From Anaerolineales bacterium (GTDB lineage: Bacteria > Chloroflexota > Anaerolineae > 4572-78 > J111), in NCBI GenBank assembly GCA_012032575.1, contig JAAUSP010000536.1, positions 1 to 5,425 of the forward strand: 5,425 nt of DNA, in the 5' to 3' direction. This document shows, piece after piece, positions 97 to 5,143 of this stretch. The number at the start of each line of letters is the position of its first letter. Position 1 is the first letter of the stretch. Under the pieces are notes generated by a model. That model ran no database searches, was not told where the DNA came from, and saw only the letters and a program-made list of their open reading frames with translations. A program made the position numbers and the translations under genes.

Positions 97-163
97 CTTT
101 TCAGGTTAGTTTTTCCACTGGCCCCGCCGAGCCTGTTTGCTCCTTTGATTTATGCAACGCTCT

Positions 164-330
164 CAAAAGGGGATGGAAACTGCCCGCTCTTGCCGCCGTT
201 GCTGTACGTCTGGCGTAGTTCTAATTGAGGCCCCGATGAAAAGGGGATGGAAACGAGAATCGCAAGAAGCTCGCGGCATGACCGCTTTGCATTTGTTCTA
301 ACTTGAGGCCCCGATGAAAAGGGGATGGAA
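164..330 (+). CRISPR. Eroded CRISPR array: three repeat copies, two spacers
   Basis: The best copy is 218-254 (37 nt): it starts GTTCTAATTGAGG, has a CCCC(231-234)/GGGG(243-246) hairpin and ends GGGGATGGAAAC. The GAAAC end is typical of type I and III arrays and suggests transcription along the plus strand. The copy at 295-330 has an extra C (GTTCTAACTTG) and ends at GGAA, missing the final AC or having it changed to GAC. The copy at 164-180 keeps only the 3' part (CAAAAGGGGATGGAAAC); its 5' half is unrecognisable. Spacers are 181-217 (37 nt) and 255-294 (40 nt), unrelated to each other and GC-rich. No cas genes or clear leader lie in the window. Both outer repeats are damaged, so this is a relic, an orphan, or the broken end of a larger array. 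Confidence 0.8.
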
Positions 331-332
331 GA

Positions 333-407
333 CCAGTTGGGAGTTAGAGTTGGGAGTTGGAGAAAGAGAGAAAGCCTCTCCAACTCCAGTCTCAAGTCTC
401 AAACTGG
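333..407. repeat. Left-arm long hairpin
   Basis: The G-rich strand 333-363 pairs with the C-rich strand 377-407. The core is a perfect 11-bp stem, GGAGTTGGAGA (353-363) against TCTCCAACTCC (377-387), around a 13-nt purine-rich loop. CCAGTT (333-338) and AACTGG (402-407) close the outer end, with mismatches between. Confidence 0.6.
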
Positions 408-442
408 CATCCTCTCCAACTCCAGTCTCCAGTCTCCAACTG
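375..442. repeat. Two 36-bp direct repeats, left arm
   Basis: Units start at 375 and 411, each opening with CCTCTCCAACTCCAGTCTC and closing with CAACTG or AAACTGG. They differ at a few positions in the middle. The same unit recurs in the right arm (904 and 940). The second copy runs up to the ribosome site of the IVP gene, so the array forms that gene's upstream region. Confidence 0.75.
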
Positions 443-452
443 ATGAGGGAGA

Positions 453-791
453 ATGTTTAGTTTTGAGAAGTTAGAGGTGTGGAAGCGCAGCCTTGACTTT
501 GCCAACGCGATGTTTGAGGTTGCCGATAATCTGCCGCAGCGGTATCAAAAATCGTTGGGGGATCAATTGCGCCGAGCGGCGTTATCAATTCCAACGAATA
601 TTGCTGAAGGCAGTGGCCGTGAAAGTGGTAAAGAGCAAGCCTACTTTTATGGAGTGGCTAAAGGCTCTGTATATGAAGTGGTCAGTCTGCTGGCGATGAT
701 CGGCAAACGAGGCAATTTGACCCGGGAGGATTACCAGCACCATCACCGAGGAAGCCGACGAAATTGCCGCGATGTTAAGCGGCCTGGCTAA
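453..791 (+). CDS. Four-helix-bundle protein, 23S rRNA intervening-sequence (IVP/S23) family, frameshifted C-terminus
   Basis: The 112-aa frame shows the family's signatures: F-x-x-L-x-V-W at residues 4-10 (FEKLEVWKRSLDFA), then QLRRAALSIPTNIAEGSGR (38-56), then EQAYFYGVAKGSVYEV (61-76), a helix-rich core. The family (Pfam 23S_rRNA_IVP, TIGR02436) is found in ORFs inside 23S rRNA intervening sequences and is related to Avd of diversity-generating retroelements. Its members form small helical bundles, and a biochemical role is mostly undefined. The start is ATG 453, with GAGGGA at 445-450 rather close upstream. Homology stops at about DYQ (residue 95). The remaining 17 residues (HHHRGSRRNC...) are unlike the family, and the expected helix continues in another frame (742-834). 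So the frame has a one-base gain or two-base loss near 735-745. The gene is bracketed by repeat arms and is alone on its strand. Confidence 0.8.
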   Translation: MFSFEKLEVWKRSLDFANAMFEVADNLPQRYQKSLGDQLRRAALSIPTNIAEGSGRESGKEQAYFYGVAKGSVYEVVSLLAMIGKRGNLTREDYQHHHRGSRRNCRDVKRPG

Positions 792-834
792 GGCTGTAAC
801 AGCAACGAAGGCCAAAACCCCGGACAAGTCTTGA
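742..834 (+). pseudogene. Displaced C-terminal helix of the IVP-family gene
   Basis: Frame 742-834 (codons one position off the upstream gene) reads ITEEADEIAAMLSGLAKAV and then a charged tail, ending at TGA 832-834. This is the amphipathic fourth helix that normally follows the DYQ region in this family. Joining the two frames would give a protein of about 126 aa, near the usual family length. The TGA lies at the first unit of the 13-bp tandem repeat, so the intact gene would have filled the space up to the right arm exactly. Confidence 0.65.
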
Positions 835-880
835 GTTGGAGTTGGGAGTTGGAGTTGGGAGTTGGAGTTGGGAGTTGGAG
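833..880. repeat. 13-bp perfect tandem repeat, 3.7 copies
   Basis: The unit GAGTTGGAGTTGG repeats without a mismatch from 833 to 871, plus nine bases of a fourth copy. It overlaps the TGA of the repaired IVP frame. The plus strand has regularly spaced GG runs separated by AGTT, so a two-layer G-quadruplex is possible on paper. The same GAGTTGG words occur imperfectly at 341-363 in the left arm. Confidence 0.85.
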
Positions 881-898
881 AAAGAGAAATCTCCAACT
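873..898. terminator. Right-arm hairpin between convergent genes
   Basis: AGTTGGAG (873-880) pairs exactly with CTCCAACT (891-898) around a 10-nt A-rich loop. It lies between the end of the IVP gene (plus) and the end of the SBBP gene (minus). There is no T-tract on either side, so intrinsic termination is only a possibility. It may simply be the mirror of the left-arm hairpin. Confidence 0.3.
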
Positions 899-903
899 GG
901 CCT

Positions 904-974
904 CCTCTCCAACTCCAGTCTCAAATCTCCAACTGGTATCCTCTCCAACTCCAGTCTCAAATCTCCAACTGGTC
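904..974. repeat. Two 36-bp direct repeats, right arm
   Basis: Units begin at 904 and 940 with CCTCTCCAACTCCAGTCTC and continue AAATCTCCAACTGGT. They are identical to each other for 34 bases. They match the left-arm units (375, 411) in the same orientation. The last ten bases, CCAACTGGTC, are the right terminus of the cassette. Confidence 0.8.
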
Positions 975-988
975 CGTTCTAATTGCGG

Positions 989-1099
989 TCAACTACTTCG
1001 TGATGAGCGGGAGATAATATTTGGTCGGGTCTCGTTTGGCTGGTGGGGGTCACTCCCCGCCTGATACTCGGCCAGATTGATCAGCCCATCCCCGTCCGG
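989..1099 (-). pseudogene. Displaced C-terminus of the SBBP-repeat protein gene
   Basis: On the minus strand, one frame off the main ORF, the sequence reads DGDGLINLAEYQAGSDP and then a short polar tail, with TGA at 989-991. It exactly completes the last DxDxDG calcium-binding repeat, which the main frame breaks after DAGSD. A single lost G (plus strand) in the CCGG at 1096-1099 accounts for the shift: GTCCGGGTCGC would restore DPDGDG. The repaired protein would be about 832 aa from the ATG at 3486. The stop lies 15 bp from the right end of the IVP cassette, and the last bases run toward CRISPR-repeat-like sequence. Confidence 0.75.
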
Positions 1100-3486
1100 T
1101 CGCTGCCGGCGTCATTCGCCAGGGGATCGAGGCCATTTGACGCCTCCCAGCCGTCAGGCATTCCATCCTGATCGGTATCAGCCGCGTCGGGTTGAGTGCC
1201 CGTCTGGTACTCGGCCAGATTGGTCAGTCCATCGCCATCCAGGTCGCTCCCGGCATCGTTGAGTTGCGGGTTGAGGCCGTGGCTTGTTTCCCAATCATCC
1301 AACATCCCATCCTGGTCGGCGTCTTGCGGGGGCTGGCCGTTCACATAAAGCTTGGCCATAAAGGCGTCCGTGCCGCCGCCCTGGTAGACCGGGCCGGGCG
1401 TTTCGCCTGCCGTCGGGAAGTGGTTGCTGCGAGTATAACCGGTCAGGTAAGCGTCGCCGGCGGCGTCTATTGCCACTCCATACCCGGCCTCGTTATTCTC
1501 CGCCCCCAGGAAGGTGCTGTAAAGCAGTTGGCCAGCGTCCTCGCTAAGCTGAGCGATGAAGGCATCCTCGTTTCCATTATAACTGGTATCAAAAGCGCCG
1601 GGGGTCGTGGGAAAGGCGGGGCTGTACGTGTAGCCGGTCACAAATACATGCCCGGTTCGATCAACCGCAATGTCCTGCCCGGCCTCATTGGCCGAACTGA
1701 CCAGACTTCCACCCAGGAAGGTGCTGTAGACCAGGCTCGCGCCGGAGGCTGCCAGCTTGGTGACAAAGACATCCTCGCCGCCGCTGTAACTCCGGTCAAA
1801 GACGCCCGGGGTCGTCGGGAAATCAGGGCTATAACTCTTCCCGGTCAGATAGACATTATTGTTCCCATCCAGGGCCAGGTTGTAAATAGCGTCGTTGCCG
1901 CTGCCGCCCAGAAAAGTCCCGTAGACCAGCTCCGGGATGCCAGGATTAAGCTTGACCACAAACCCCTCCTGACCGCCACCGGGATAATCATCGAAGCTGC
2001 TGTAAGTGACTGGGAACCAGCCGTAGGTGTAGCCGGCCACGTAGACAAAGCCGCCGCCATCCACGGCAATGCCGGTAGCCACATCGGTGCTGGAACTGCC
2101 CAGGTAGGTGCTGTAGTCAAGATAGGCTCCGTCGGGATCTACCTTCACTATGAAGACATCCTCACTGCCCTGGTGATAGTCTTGCAAGACGTTTCCGGTC
2201 AGGGGAAAATCGTCGCTGAAGGTGTAGCCGGTGATGTAGGCCGCGTTTCCGGCATCCACCGCAATGTCCTGGCCGCGCTCGTTGGACCAACCGCCGAGAT
2301 AGTCGCAGTAATCCAGCCCGCTCCCGTCGGCGTTCAGCCGCAGGACAAAGGCATCCTCGGCTCCATTGAGATAGTCGCTGCCAAAGCCGCCCTGCGCGGT
2401 CAAGCCCAACCCGCCGCCGTGACCTTCGGGAAAGTTGGGGCTGCGGGTGTAACCGGTCACGTAAGCCCGGTCATTGCCGTCGAGGGCGATACCCCATCCT
2501 TCTTCATCATCATTGCCGCCGATATAGGTGCTGTAGACCAGCGCCGTCCCGGCCGGGTTGATTTTGGTCACAAAGACATCCTTGCTGCCATTGGTATCCC
2601 CATCATAATAAACGCCGCCGCTGTCGGTGATGACGAAATCGGGGCTGTAGGTGTAGCCAGTCACGTAAGCCGCGCCACTGGGGTCCACGGCAATATCGTA
2701 GCCGGCCTCGTTGCTGCTGCCGCCCAGAAAAGTGCTGTAATACAGCACCGGGTCTATCACCAGCGGGGTGGCCCGGTCGTAGGCAGCCAGCCGCAGCCGG
2801 ACCTGATCGCCGGACAGGGTATAATGCCCGGAAACACTCACTCGTTGACCGCCGGTTTCCTGATAGATCATGGGCGCCTGTTGGCGTAGCGTCTGGCCGT
2901 CGGGCAGGCGCAAATTCAGGTTGCCGGCCTCGTCCAGGCCGAGCGCCTCAGCCCCGCTAAACTCCATCACGATCTGGCCGGGATCACCGCCGGGAGCGAC
3001 GATAAAATCGTACTCCAATTGGCCGCCGCTGTTGCCGTATAGGCGCAGGTCCACCCCCTCGTAAACTCGCTGGTAGGACACCTGCCCATAGTGGGGGATG
3101 TGGGTGTGCCAGTTGGCCGGGTCGCGGCCAATCAGGTAATTGCTCTGGCCAGCCTGTTTGTTCAGCCCGGCGATGGCTTCCGGGGTATCACCCCCAGTCA
3201 GCGACATTTGCAGCAGGTTGGGTTCGCCGGTGTCAGCCTGGCTCAGGGCCAGGGTAAAACCGGATTCGGTCAGGAATAGGGTGTAGCCCGGCCTGCGCGA
3301 AATGAATTTCACCGCCGCCGGCGCCTGGCCCCGGTTGGCCTCGAAACTGAGCGGCAGGCGGGGATAAGCCAGCGCCGGATCAGGATTATCTGCGGCAGCC
3401 GGAGCGGCCCCGGTCAGGGAGAGCAGCAGCACAGCCAGGAGTAAAAAGGATAGTATTTCGATTTGAGGAAAAGTGATGTGCTTCAT
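1081..3486 (-). CDS. Secreted SBBP-repeat beta-propeller protein with C-terminal DxDxDG calcium-binding repeats
   Basis: The start is ATG 3486, chosen because AGGAG (3494-3498) lies 7 bases upstream and the protein then opens with a clean signal peptide (basic MKH, then LSFLLLAVLLLSLTGAAPAAA, residues 12-32). An upstream in-frame ATG at 3513 would bury it. Residues about 43-245 (FEANRGQAPAAVKFISR..., LRLYGNSGGQLEYDF...) match the domain that commonly precedes SBBP repeats. Seven SBBP repeats follow (about 248-713), each with YSTFLGG, G-x-x-IAVD and VTGYTYSPDFP-type motifs; seven suggests one closed propeller. From about 722, DxDxDG / GLNP / LTNLAEY units resemble thrombospondin-type-3 calcium-binding repeats. 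The protein is probably exported and surface-associated or released. No sortase, anchor or catalytic motif is seen. The 801-aa frame ends by frameshift at 1081 (see 989-1099). Alone on its strand; substrate unknown. Confidence 0.88.
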   Translation of the reverse strand: MKHITFPQIEILSFLLLAVLLLSLTGAAPAAADNPDPALAYPRLPLSFEANRGQAPAAVKFISRRPGYTLFLTESGFTLALSQADTGEPNLLQMSLTGGDTPEAIAGLNKQAGQSNYLIGRDPANWHTHIPHYGQVSYQRVYEGVDLRLYGNSGGQLEYDFIVAPGGDPGQIVMEFSGAEALGLDEAGNLNLRLPDGQTLRQQAPMIYQETGGQRVSVSGHYTLSGDQVRLRLAAYDRATPLVIDPVLYYSTFLGGSSNEAGYDIAVDPSGAAYVTGYTYSPDFVITDSGGVYYDGDTNGSKDVFVTKINPAGTALVYSTYIGGNDDEEGWGIALDGNDRAYVTGYTRSPNFPEGHGGGLGLTAQGGFGSDYLNGAEDAFVLRLNADGSGLDYCDYLGGWSNERGQDIAVDAGNAAYITGYTFSDDFPLTGNVLQDYHQGSEDVFIVKVDPDGAYLDYSTYLGSSSTDVATGIAVDGGGFVYVAGYTYGWFPVTYSSFDDYPGGGQEGFVVKLNPGIPELVYGTFLGGSGNDAIYNLALDGNNNVYLTGKSYSPDFPTTPGVFDRSYSGGEDVFVTKLAASGASLVYSTFLGGSLVSSANEAGQDIAVDRTGHVFVTGYTYSPAFPTTPGAFDTSYNGNEDAFIAQLSEDAGQLLYSTFLGAENNEAGYGVAIDAAGDAYLTGYTRSNHFPTAGETPGPVYQGGGTDAFMAKLYVNGQPPQDADQDGMLDDWETSHGLNPQLNDAGSDLDGDGLTNLAEYQTGTQPDAADTDQDGMPDGWEASNGLDPLANDAGSDRTGMG

Positions 3487-3493
3487 AGAAAAG

Positions 3494-3498
3494 CTCCT
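3494..3498 (-). promoter_or_regulatory. Ribosome binding site of the SBBP gene
   Basis: The minus strand reads AAAGGAGCTTTTCT before ATG 3486. AGGAG with 7-base spacing decides between this ATG and the ATG at 3513, in favour of this one. Confidence 0.7.
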
Positions 3499-3506
3499 TT
3501 CTTCTG

Positions 3507-3542
3507 ACAACATAAATTAACAACATAATGCCCAAGATGTTG
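3507..3542. repeat. Direct repeats ACAACATAA with an inverted ATGTTG, upstream of the SBBP gene
   Basis: ACAACATAA occurs exactly at 3507-3515 and 3520-3528, a 13-bp step. Its core appears inverted as ATGTTG at 3537-3542. The group lies in the upstream region of the minus-strand gene, close to where its promoter should be. That makes an operator possible, but no clear -35/-10 pair could be fixed. Confidence 0.35.
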
Positions 3543-3662: not shown

Positions 3663-4562
3663 TTGACGATGCCAACACTCCATTCCACTATCGCTGAATG
3701 GCTGGACTATCTGGCCCGGCAGGGTAAAAGCGAGCTGACGATGGCCGCTTATCGGCGCGGCCTGGTTCACTTTTGTTGTTGGTCCGAGCAGGCTTACGGC
3801 CAGGCCTTCGACCCAGCGGCGATCATTCCCCGCGACATAGCCGAGTGGAAAGCCCGCCAGCAAACAGTTGAAAAAGCGCCCCCGGCCACAGTCAACGCCC
3901 GCCTGACCGCGCTCTCTCGCTATTTTAAGTGGGCCCTGGCCCAAGGTTATGCCCGCAGCGACCCGACGGCTGACATCAAAAGTATGCGCCCCACGATCCG
4001 CCAGCCCAAAGCCCTTAAAGACGTATATGTCCGCCGCTTGCTGCGCTACGTCCACCAAACCGGCCAAAAACGGGACATCGCTTTGGTGGAAGTAATGCTC
4101 GGTTCAGGCTTACGGGTCTCCGAGGCGCTGGCCTTGCGGGCTGGAGACGTCATCCTCAACGTCCGGATTGGCGAGGTAACCGTGCGACGGGGCAAGGGCG
4201 GGGTTCACCGGGTGGTGCCCCTGACCAGCCCGGTGCGCCAGGCAGTTAAGGCTTACCTGGACTCGCAACCGGGGTTGCAGCCCGACGACCCCCTGTGGGT
4301 GGGTGAGCGCGGCCCGCTGCACGACCGGAGCGGGGTGTTCCAGATGCTCAAGAAATATGCCCGCCTGGCCGGGCTTGATCCCGACTTGATTAGTCCCCAT
4401 ATTCTCAGGCACACTTTCGCCAGCCGCTATTTGGCGGCTAATCCCGATGATTTACGCGGCCTGGCAGCTATCCTGGGCCATGCCAACCTGAACACCGTAA
4501 TGATTTACACTATTCCCGACCCGGCCGACCTGCTCAGCCGGATGGAGAAAGCGGAATTGTGA
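3663..4562 (+). CDS. Tyrosine recombinase / phage-type integrase, XerC/D-like
   Basis: The 299-aa protein is a site-specific recombinase that cuts and rejoins DNA through a covalent phosphotyrosine intermediate. The N-terminal SAM-like core-binding domain covers about residues 5-105 (AEWLDYLARQGKSELTMAAY...; LTALSRYFKWALAQG). The catalytic domain follows with the full set of active-site residues: Arg151 (GSGLRVSEALALR), Lys178 in the beta-hairpin (VRRGKGGVHRVVPL), His246 and Arg249 (SPHILRHTFAS), His273 (ILGHANLNTVMIY) and nucleophile Tyr282. Length and layout fit Xer-type or solitary integron-free integrases. Nothing points to chromosome dimer resolution rather than element mobility. The start is TTG 3663 by ribosome site, or ATG 3669. 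No excisionase is next to it. It converges on a broken sigma gene and is preceded by phased repeats that may be its own sites. It looks intact and functional. Confidence 0.92.
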   Translation: MTMPTLHSTIAEWLDYLARQGKSELTMAAYRRGLVHFCCWSEQAYGQAFDPAAIIPRDIAEWKARQQTVEKAPPATVNARLTALSRYFKWALAQGYARSDPTADIKSMRPTIRQPKALKDVYVRRLLRYVHQTGQKRDIALVEVMLGSGLRVSEALALRAGDVILNVRIGEVTVRRGKGGVHRVVPLTSPVRQAVKAYLDSQPGLQPDDPLWVGERGPLHDRSGVFQMLKKYARLAGLDPDLISPHILRHTFASRYLAANPDDLRGLAAILGHANLNTVMIYTIPDPADLLSRMEKAEL

Positions 4563-4590: not shown

Positions 4591-4692
4591 TCACCCGGCC
4601 TGGTGGCACAGGCCCCTTAATCGTTGCCGGGTTTCCCGTTCGATCTGGCGGATACGCTCGCTGCTAACGCCGCCCAATCCGCTAACGTCGCC
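4591..4692 (-). pseudogene. Out-of-frame remnant of sigma-70 region 4.2
   Basis: In a frame different from the upstream sigma ORF, the minus strand reads GGVSSERIRQIERETRQRLR and then a short tail, stopping at TGA 4591-4593. SSERIRQIE is the helix-turn-helix recognition segment of sigma-70 region 4.2, which contacts the -35 box (canonical form: GVTRERIRQIE). The third frame at 4674-4706 reads [11 protein letters not shown], resembling the preceding LTPxEE...TLAEIG part of regions 4.1-4.2. So the C-terminal domain is present only in fragments, spread over two frames. It directly follows region 2.4, with no room for region 3. Confidence 0.6.
4597..4614. terminator. Weak hairpin between the convergent integrase and sigma remnant
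   Basis: GGCCTG (4597-4602) pairs exactly with CAGGCC (4609-4614) around a 6-nt loop, 35 bp after the integrase stop. Only CCTTAA follows on the plus strand, so there is no proper T-tract. It also overlaps the codons of the displaced sigma C-terminus, so it may be fortuitous. Confidence 0.25.
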
Positions 4693-5143
4693 CCCGCTTC
4701 TTCATTGGAGTCAGGGAGATGGATACCGGGGTCTGCCGGGCGAGAGCGCCGCGCATCGCTCGCCGAATCCAGTGCATAGCGTAGGTGCTGAAGCAGCAGC
4801 TCAGCCGATAATCAAATTTATCCACCGCCTGGATCAGGCCGAGGTTGCCCTCCTGGATCAGGTCGGGCAGGGGCAAATCAGCCCGTGCGTACCGGCGAGC
4901 CACGCTCAGTACCAGGCGGTAATTGGCTTCGATGAAGCGCTGCCGGGCGACCTGACCGCAGCGAACCACCTGCTCCAGTTGGTCTCGTTGGGTACTGTCT
5001 GGATTGGCCTGCAACTGCTGGGCGGCCCGGCGGCCAGCCTCGATCTGGTGGGCCAGGTCTATTTCCTCCCCGGCTTCGAGCAGCCGCAGGCCTCTGATAT
5101 CGTTCAGGTACAGTCTCAAGGTGTCGTTTTCCTGGGCTAACAT
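4682..5143 (-). CDS. RNA polymerase sigma-70 family factor, truncated after region 2
   Basis: The 153-aa frame holds region 1.2 ([25 protein letters not shown], residues 7-31) and region 2 ([21 protein letters not shown] 66-86; [22 protein letters not shown] 92-113; [13 protein letters not shown] 118-130). These bind the beta-prime coiled coil and the -10 element. It then ends abruptly with MKKRGRR; region 3 and all of region 4 are missing from this frame. Two positions are unusual: [10 protein letters not shown] where primary sigmas have RRGFKFSTYA, and HW in place of the WW pair that opens the -10 strands. The start is ATG 5143, with GAGGAG (5152-5157) 8 bases upstream. That site overlaps the stop of the preceding gene, so the two are probably co-translated. 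An out-of-frame region 4.2 remnant follows at 4591-4692. This is most likely a decayed alternative (group 2-like) sigma gene; a deliberately short factor is less likely. Confidence 0.8.

What the first reader, a model, noticed from the sequence alone, without database searches (positions are those of the whole stretch)
331..974. A four-helix-bundle gene packaged in a 644-bp unit with complementary ends: a possible IVS-like mobile cassette outside rRNA
The sequence shows exact 10-bp inverted termini (GACCAGTTGG / CCAACTGGTC), 26/33 matches over the longer ends, repeat arms on both sides and a single IVP-family gene. IVP-family genes are known inside stem-forming intervening sequences of bacterial 23S rRNA. 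Inference: this is the same kind of unit in a non-rRNA location, a non-autonomous element whose RNA or DNA folds end to end, with the small protein possibly binding that structure.
Basis: partly seen in the sequence, partly recalled or inferred. Interest (0 to 1): 0.72.

Follow-up and report, generated by a model that had tools for sequence, protein, structure and literature searches.

The report
Small-gene hairpin unit among CRISPR-like repeats
The stretch is one member of a widespread family of small DNA units, each a single poorly understood gene between two mirror-image repeat arms, found between genes in many bacteria and here sitting where a CRISPR spacer would be; such units might explain both an orphan protein family and some puzzling short repeats.

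Summary
In detail: 331-974 has exact 10-bp inverted termini (26/33 over longer ends), repeat arms on both sides and one IVP gene (PF05635). Two things were missed: each side is itself a hairpin (331-442, 835-974), and the unit stands in spacer position between CRISPR-like repeats (218-254, 295-330, partial 976-988).

It is not unique. Of 230 IVP loci, 176 have complementary arms beating all 100 shuffles (score >=18 in 137/230; control ORFs 2/305). Arm sequence follows IVP type, and the two arms change together (90/97 pairs at 60-70% protein identity). At four of four cyanobacterial plasmid sites compared, related plasmids lack the unit. Neighbours are mostly co-directional (142 against 7). Arm motifs reach >=5 copies in 12 of 13 genome-by-type cells with the matching IVP, 3 of 43 without.

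Best reading: a mobile IVP-hairpin family organised like REPIN-RAYT but without that transposase. That the protein acts on its arms is inferred. The end-to-end RNA reading is weakly supported: no G-U excess in arm mismatches. Three of 11 window-like units lie among CRISPR repeats, one beside RT-cas1-cas2.

The parts
149..330 (+). CRISPR-like repeats left of the unit: degenerate copy ending at 180, full 37-nt copy 218-254, 36-nt copy 295-330 (ends GGATGGAA), unique 37- and 40-nt stretches between them
   Evidence: (family D4: 28 nt identical in two copies, 64% in the third); the repeat is in 0 of 396 genomes of the class of L002's genome
331..340 (+). left 10-bp terminus GACCAGTTGG
331..442 (+). 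left hairpin: G-rich arm (331 to about 371) and C-rich arm (375-442)
   Evidence: inverted repeats I3, I4; z -3.15
453..791 (+). IVP (S23, four-helix-bundle) gene, ATG start; homology ends at about codon 97, the C-terminus is out of register with relatives
   Evidence: PF05635 E 1.4e-26; 71% identity to L001; 2gsc, E 3.6e-13
835..974 (+). right hairpin: G-rich repeats with 13-nt spacing (about 835-885) and C-rich arm (about 886-974)
   Evidence: families D1, D2; I5, I6; z -5.62
965..974 (+). right 10-bp terminus CCAACTGGTC
976..988 (+). start of a degenerate copy of the CRISPR-like repeat directly right of the unit
   Evidence: (family D6, 92% over 13 nt)

Best explanation
The unit belongs to a widespread family of compact insertable elements: one IVP (S23) gene between complementary arms made of imperfect 6-8-nt repeats. 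Shown by comparison: paired arms are a property of the family; arm sequence follows the IVP type; the two arms of a unit change together; units stand at gene junctions, mostly in sense, where related replicons lack them; arm motifs of a type are dispersed mainly in genomes that hold the matching IVP. Inferred: the IVP protein recognises its own repeat type as a DNA or RNA hairpin and helps copy it, with or without its gene, into gene junctions, as RAYT is thought to do for REPINs (recalled). It has no known nuclease domain, so host enzymes would do the cutting or annealing. At the four sites compared, 0 to 42 nt of the empty site are missing and no long target duplication is present, which fits annealing or template switching better than a classical transposase. 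In the window the unit stands in place of a spacer in a CRISPR-like array.
For: Arms: score >=18 in 137/230 units against 24/1150 mismatched pairs, 29/230 in direct orientation and 2/305 control ORFs; 176/230 beat all 100 shuffles. Type-specific: arms alike in 81.5% of 92 between-genome pairs above 70% protein identity, about 2% below 40%. Co-evolving: own pairing beats swapped pairing in 90/97 pairs at 60-70% identity, p 1e-16. Insertions: L290 against L316/L317, L293/L299 against L313, L294 against L315, L300 against L318. Dispersed arms: >=5 copies in 12/13 cells with cognate IVP, 3/43 without. Sense bias 142 against 7. Similar IVP plus arms in unrelated contexts (L194 against L202/L203/L204, L190 against L157/L160).
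Against: No movement was observed in real time. Same-genome copies are almost all of different types (4 of 133 pairs above 60% identity), so there is no IS-like burst of the gene. Most pairs above 70% identity share their neighbours on both sides (57 of 92), that is, they are largely inherited in place. G257 and G016 carry T1 arms without a T1 IVP (27 and 16). The T3 reversed control was not clean (46 in G090). 54 of 230 units do not beat all shuffles, and 4 of 23 cyanobacterial plasmid loci likewise. IVP binding to arms was not tested.
Confidence: 0.55

Rival explanations
1. IVP is a regulator and the dispersed arms are its binding sites in operon junctions (translation or transcript stability). 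The arms around its own gene are autoregulatory, and repeats spread by slippage and selection rather than by IVP.
For: Sense-strand bias; dispersed arms often lie in one orientation only (12 of 20 T1 sites). For the heptamer TAACTGA, the motif counted as T5 here, a post-transcriptional regulator has been proposed (PMC4679880, abstract).
Against: Whole units appear at sites empty in relatives, and gene-less arms vary from genome to genome at one junction; binding sites alone do not explain the inverted pairing around the gene.
Confidence: 0.22
2. IVS-like RNA element: the transcript folds end to end, is trimmed by RNase III, and the structure is what selection keeps.
For: The full-length RNA closes its ends, z -6.3; units lie in sense in operons; the family is known from RNase III-excised IVS (PMC4990558, abstract and introduction).
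Against: No G-U over A-C excess in 135 units (230 against 246); local hairpins on both sides of the window gene; single unpaired arms are dispersed.
Confidence: 0.12
3. Capture by the CRISPR adaptation machinery: the unit entered the array as an oversized spacer, possibly through an RT-Cas1 route.
For: The unit stands in spacer position in window, L009 and L012; L009 has RT, cas1 and cas2 just upstream.
Against: Repeats right of the units in L009 (second repeat) and L012 are truncated at their 5' side, which whole-repeat duplication would not give. The other 228 units were not recognised next to such repeats (detectors that can miss two-copy arrays), so it cannot be the general route.
Confidence: 0.06
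4. Simple-sequence slippage: both flanks are low-complexity repeats that pair by chance.
For: Arms are low-complexity short repeats.
Against: Own pairing beats mismatched pairs, direct orientation and control ORFs, and the arms change together.
Confidence: 0.03

Closest known systems
23S rRNA intervening sequences (IVS) with an S23p/IVP ORF
   Same: one IVP-family gene inside an element bordered by complementary sequences (PMC4990558, introduction)
   Different: not in rRNA; arms are short tandem repeats that differ by IVP type; gene-less arms are dispersed; no test of RNase III excision here
REPIN-RAYT systems (recalled; PMC3116915 seen in a search listing only)
   Same: single gene flanked by hairpin repeats, related gene-less copies dispersed in intergenic DNA, type-specific pairing of gene and repeat
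   Different: IVP is PF05635 alone, not a Y1 (HUH) transposase; arms are 6-8-nt tandem repeats, not REP palindromes
Intergenic heptamer repeats: TAACTGA (PMC4679880, abstract, outline and passages), GGGAATC and GGGGACT (PMC4692102, passages), cyanobacterial STRR (recalled)
   Same: 6-8-nt tandem repeats between genes; TAACTGA is the arm motif of the L190 unit
   Different: the terms S23, four helix, IVS and 23S and S23 and hypothetical protein were not found in the main text of the two papers; no paired gene is described in the passages I saw
Avd of diversity-generating retroelements (recalled)
   Same: related four-helix-bundle fold, pentameric (recalled)
   Different: none of the five window ORFs scanned matches a reverse transcriptase; template and variable repeats were not searched

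Membership tests
IVP / S23 protein family (PF05635) | match above the curated cut-off | tested here: met
   93.2 bits against 33.8
23S rRNA IVS | located inside an rRNA gene | tested here: not met
   no Rfam family reaches its gathering score in the window
23S rRNA IVS | complementary borders | tested here: met
23S rRNA IVS | excision by RNase III | not testable with these tools
   needs RNA from the host
REPIN-RAYT | Y1 (HUH) transposase gene | tested here: not met
   the gene matches PF05635 only
REPIN-RAYT | dispersed gene-less copies in genomes with the gene | tested here: met
   met for relatives, four arm motifs in 14 genomes; not testable for the window, whose genome is not held
Insertion sequence | transposase and target-site duplication | tested here: not met
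   no transposase in the unit; at relatives' sites 16-42 nt missing, or a 3-nt duplication in L290
CRISPR array around the unit | regular repeats with unique spacers, and cas genes | tested here: inconclusive
   two near-identical repeats plus two partial ones; no cas match among the five window ORFs scanned; repeat in 0 of 396 genomes searched
DGR accessory protein Avd | reverse transcriptase and template/variable repeats nearby | tested here: inconclusive
   no RT among the five window ORFs scanned; the window is only 5.4 kb and template/variable repeats were not searched

The most novel reading that the evidence does not exclude
IVP proteins and short tandem-repeat hairpins form a two-part system across bacteria: each IVP type recognises its own 6-8-nt repeat and propagates it, with or without its gene, into transcribed gene junctions and sometimes into CRISPR arrays. 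This would be the missing origin of intergenic heptamers such as TAACTGA and a function for the S23/IVP family.
Probability: 0.4. Interest if true: 0.9.

Novelty: new variant of a known kind. Interest (0 to 1): 0.77.

Why it matters
S23/IVP proteins are described as having no known function (PMC4990558, introduction), and the spread of the TAACTGA heptamer as having no evident mechanism (PMC4679880, abstract). If each IVP type is the partner of one repeat type, both questions become testable by a binding assay and a strain comparison. The units are short and lie between genes of operons, so annotation passes over them as one small gene.

Tried and rejected
Same arms elsewhere: one exact-pattern scan of viral contigs gave 0, the distant plasmid search of the whole unit gave none, phage tblastn gave none. 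General CRISPR association of IVP units: rejected. (three or more spaced copies) flagged nine arrays, of which only L012 (also held as L102) is a CRISPR array next to its IVP. (direct repeats on both sides) flagged 12 of 239 units, with the CRISPR repeats only in L009 and L012 by my reading; the window's hit there is its arm repeat, and I did not examine the other nine for arrays. The window's own repeats were read; these detectors would miss such a two-copy case in other units, so '0 of 228' is a lower bound and the p is indicative only. L195 has a 3-copy spaced repeat about 1.2 kb from its IVP that I did not examine. Cas operons: 3 of the 13 plasmid records opened (14 found; H6 not opened) hold the IVP between cas genes; enrichment was not tested. 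RNA-stem selection: no G-U excess. IS-like multiplication of the gene in a genome: not seen. The (GATAGA)n count in G001-G010 was dropped as a test because its reversed control is nearly the same repeat. Reversed controls were 0 in all 14 genomes for T1, T4 and T5, but for T3 46 in G090 and 1-3 in five others. In one search the loci were each counted as a genome of their own, and 3 of 133 same-genome pairs had arms scoring >=14, all below 40% protein identity. Of the 37 plasmid records I opened 10; of the 23 cyanobacterial plasmid IVP loci scored, 19 beat all 100 shuffles (L298, L301, L303 and L311 did not; L293/L299 share a locus type, and so do L295/L302). TAACTGA arms were not among the arms printed for those loci. 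Literature: the listings showed no title or abstract start that joins IVP genes to repeat arms; this covers the held open library only and the shown rows only.

Full report
Observation. The arm score of 21 lies above the maximum of 11 in 60 shuffles. Both sides are themselves hairpins: 331-442 (DNA fold z -3.15) and 835-974 (z -5.62). The full-length RNA also closes end to end (z -6.3, 20 shuffles). The gene's frame leaves the family after about codon 97.

Directly left of the unit lies a 36-nt repeat (295-330) that repeats 218-254, with a degenerate copy ending at 180. Directly right, 976-988 matches the start of that repeat at 12 of 13. With 37- and 40-nt unique stretches between copies this looks like the end of a CRISPR array with the unit in spacer position. 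It is not proven: none of the five window ORFs scanned is a cas gene, and the repeat is in 0 of 396 genomes of the class of L002's genome. Two relatives of the window IVP show it more clearly. In L012, five regular repeats are followed by an IVP unit and a truncated repeat. In L009, a reverse transcriptase (PF00078, E 1.6e-30), GATAGA repeats, cas1 and cas2 precede repeat - gene-less hairpin - partial repeat - IVP unit - repeat (the hairpin is read by eye). These are 3 of the 11 window-like Chloroflexota units (window, L001-L009, L012); none of the other 228 was recognised (p 7e-5). That comparison was made after seeing the cases, and the detectors can miss two-copy arrays, so the p-value is indicative only.

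Family survey. One search gave 80 loci (the best 80 of 552), 30 loci from 11 genomes, (301 genomes of L009's phylum, 92 with a match) 29 new loci, and 100 further regions. With the window this gave 239 distinct IVP units, 230 with enough flank. Upstream against reverse-complemented downstream flank: score >=18 in 137/230, against 24/1150 mismatched pairs, 29/230 in direct orientation and 2/305 control ORFs; 176/230 beat all 100 shuffles. In the matched arms the upstream side is G-rich and C-poor and the downstream side the reverse. Motifs differ widely (GAGTTGG in the window; GATAGAG, GTTTATTTG, TTCGATA, TCAGTTA and others).

Arms belong to IVP types. Among 158 units with arms, arms of different genomes are alike in 81.5% of 92 pairs above 70% protein identity, 48.5% of 97 pairs at 60-70%, 9.8% of 420 at 50-60% and about 2% below 40%. 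Copies in one genome are of different types (4 of 133 pairs above 60%, none of those four with like arms; 3 of the 133 have like arms, all below 40%). At 60-70% identity a unit's own arms pair better than arms swapped between the two units in 90 of 97 pairs (p 1e-16), at 70-80% in 38 of 51, and above 80% no longer (14 of 31, 2 of 10). So arm sequence drifts while pairing is kept. Mismatches show no G-U excess (230 G-U against 246 A-C in 135 units), which fits copying at DNA level, or selection on both strands, better than selection on a sense RNA stem.

Insertion. Neighbours are co-directional with the IVP on both sides in 142 of 239 units and both opposite in 7; 36 are mixed and 54 lack a neighbour (crude ORF calling). 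For four cyanobacterial plasmid loci I searched for relatives, and each has relatives without the IVP unit. L290 sits in a TAATG stop/start overlap with a 3-nt duplication (L316, L317 empty). L293/L299 replaces 42 nt (L313 empty; L314 holds, by eye, a gene-less inverted repeat). L294 replaces 16 nt (L315). L300, between cas10 and cmr3, replaces 32 nt (L318) (7 of the listed relatives were fetched). At the YgeW-arcC junction of Anaerolineae, 25 distinct loci hold an IVP unit (4), an inverted repeat above all 50 shuffles without IVP (11, of which five look like ordinary terminators to my eye) or neither (10). Pairs above 70% identity share neighbours on both sides in 57 of 92 and on neither in 31. 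L190 and L194 lie in contexts unrelated to those of close relatives with like arms, and L207 (against L161, L188, L217) and the pair L181/L206 lie with their flanks exchanged, that is, inverted between the same neighbours.

Dispersed arms. In 14 genomes (10 rich in IVP, 4 without) I counted four arm motifs and located the cognate IVP (T1; T3; T4; T5, with IVP presence from fetched units only). At least 5 copies occur in 12 of 13 cells with the cognate IVP and in 3 of 43 without (p 1e-8; 3 of 27 within IVP-positive genomes, p 1e-6). Counts include the unit's own arms and overlapping registers of one array. Exceptions are G257 (27 T1, 5 T3) and G016 (16 T1) without, and G038 (2 T5) with the IVP. 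Genomes are related, and no phylogenetic correction was made. Of 20 T1 sites read in G074 none has an IVP in its 2 kb, 12 lie outside any frame of 100 aa or more, and 12 have arms in one orientation only. T5 is the heptamer TAACTGA, reported as abundant in marine Beggiatoaceae, possibly spread horizontally, with no evident mechanism (PMC4679880, abstract).

Interpretation. Shown: a family of paired-arm IVP units with type-specific arms, variable occupancy of gene junctions, and gene-less arms. Inferred: the protein acts on its arms. I give the REPIN-RAYT-like mobile reading 0.55, the regulator reading 0.22, the IVS-like RNA reading 0.12, spacer capture 0.06 and chance 0.03. The unit is not a 23S IVS (not in rRNA), not a RAYT and not an IS; it works like a REPIN-RAYT pair built on an IVS-type protein. 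The window itself gives anatomy and context only: its genome is not held, so its own mobility and dispersed arms could not be tested.

Noticed in passing
L009 96-3446: Reverse transcriptase, GATAGA repeats, cas1, cas2 and a CRISPR array whose only two 'spacers' are a gene-less hairpin and an IVP unit.
   Followed up: partly
L292, L297 (cas6 - IVP - cas4), L300 (cas10 - IVP - cmr3): IVP units inserted between cas genes on three cyanobacterial plasmids; in L300 a related plasmid (L318) lacks the unit.
   Followed up: partly
window 3663-4562; L295, L302, L308, L309, L310, L312: A tyrosine recombinase gene lies 2.7 kb downstream in the window, and integrase genes lie next to the IVP in six of the 23 plasmid loci examined. 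Not tested for meaning.
   Followed up: no
L216 1983-2453: The IVP ORF (156 aa) seems to run on towards the right arm, so its C-terminal tail may be written in repeat sequence.
   Followed up: no
L012 766-872 and 2366-2426: The IVP gene of L012 is interrupted by further sequence, and a lone CRISPR repeat followed by an arm lies about 1.3 kb further on.
   Followed up: no
window 1081-3513: SBBP beta-propeller gene on the minus strand with DUF7948; its C-terminal TSP3-like part appears out of frame at 1081, judged from the repeat 1043-1097 against 1186-1240.
   Followed up: no
window 4682-5143: Sigma-70 gene on the minus strand with regions 1.2 and 2 only.
   Followed up: no
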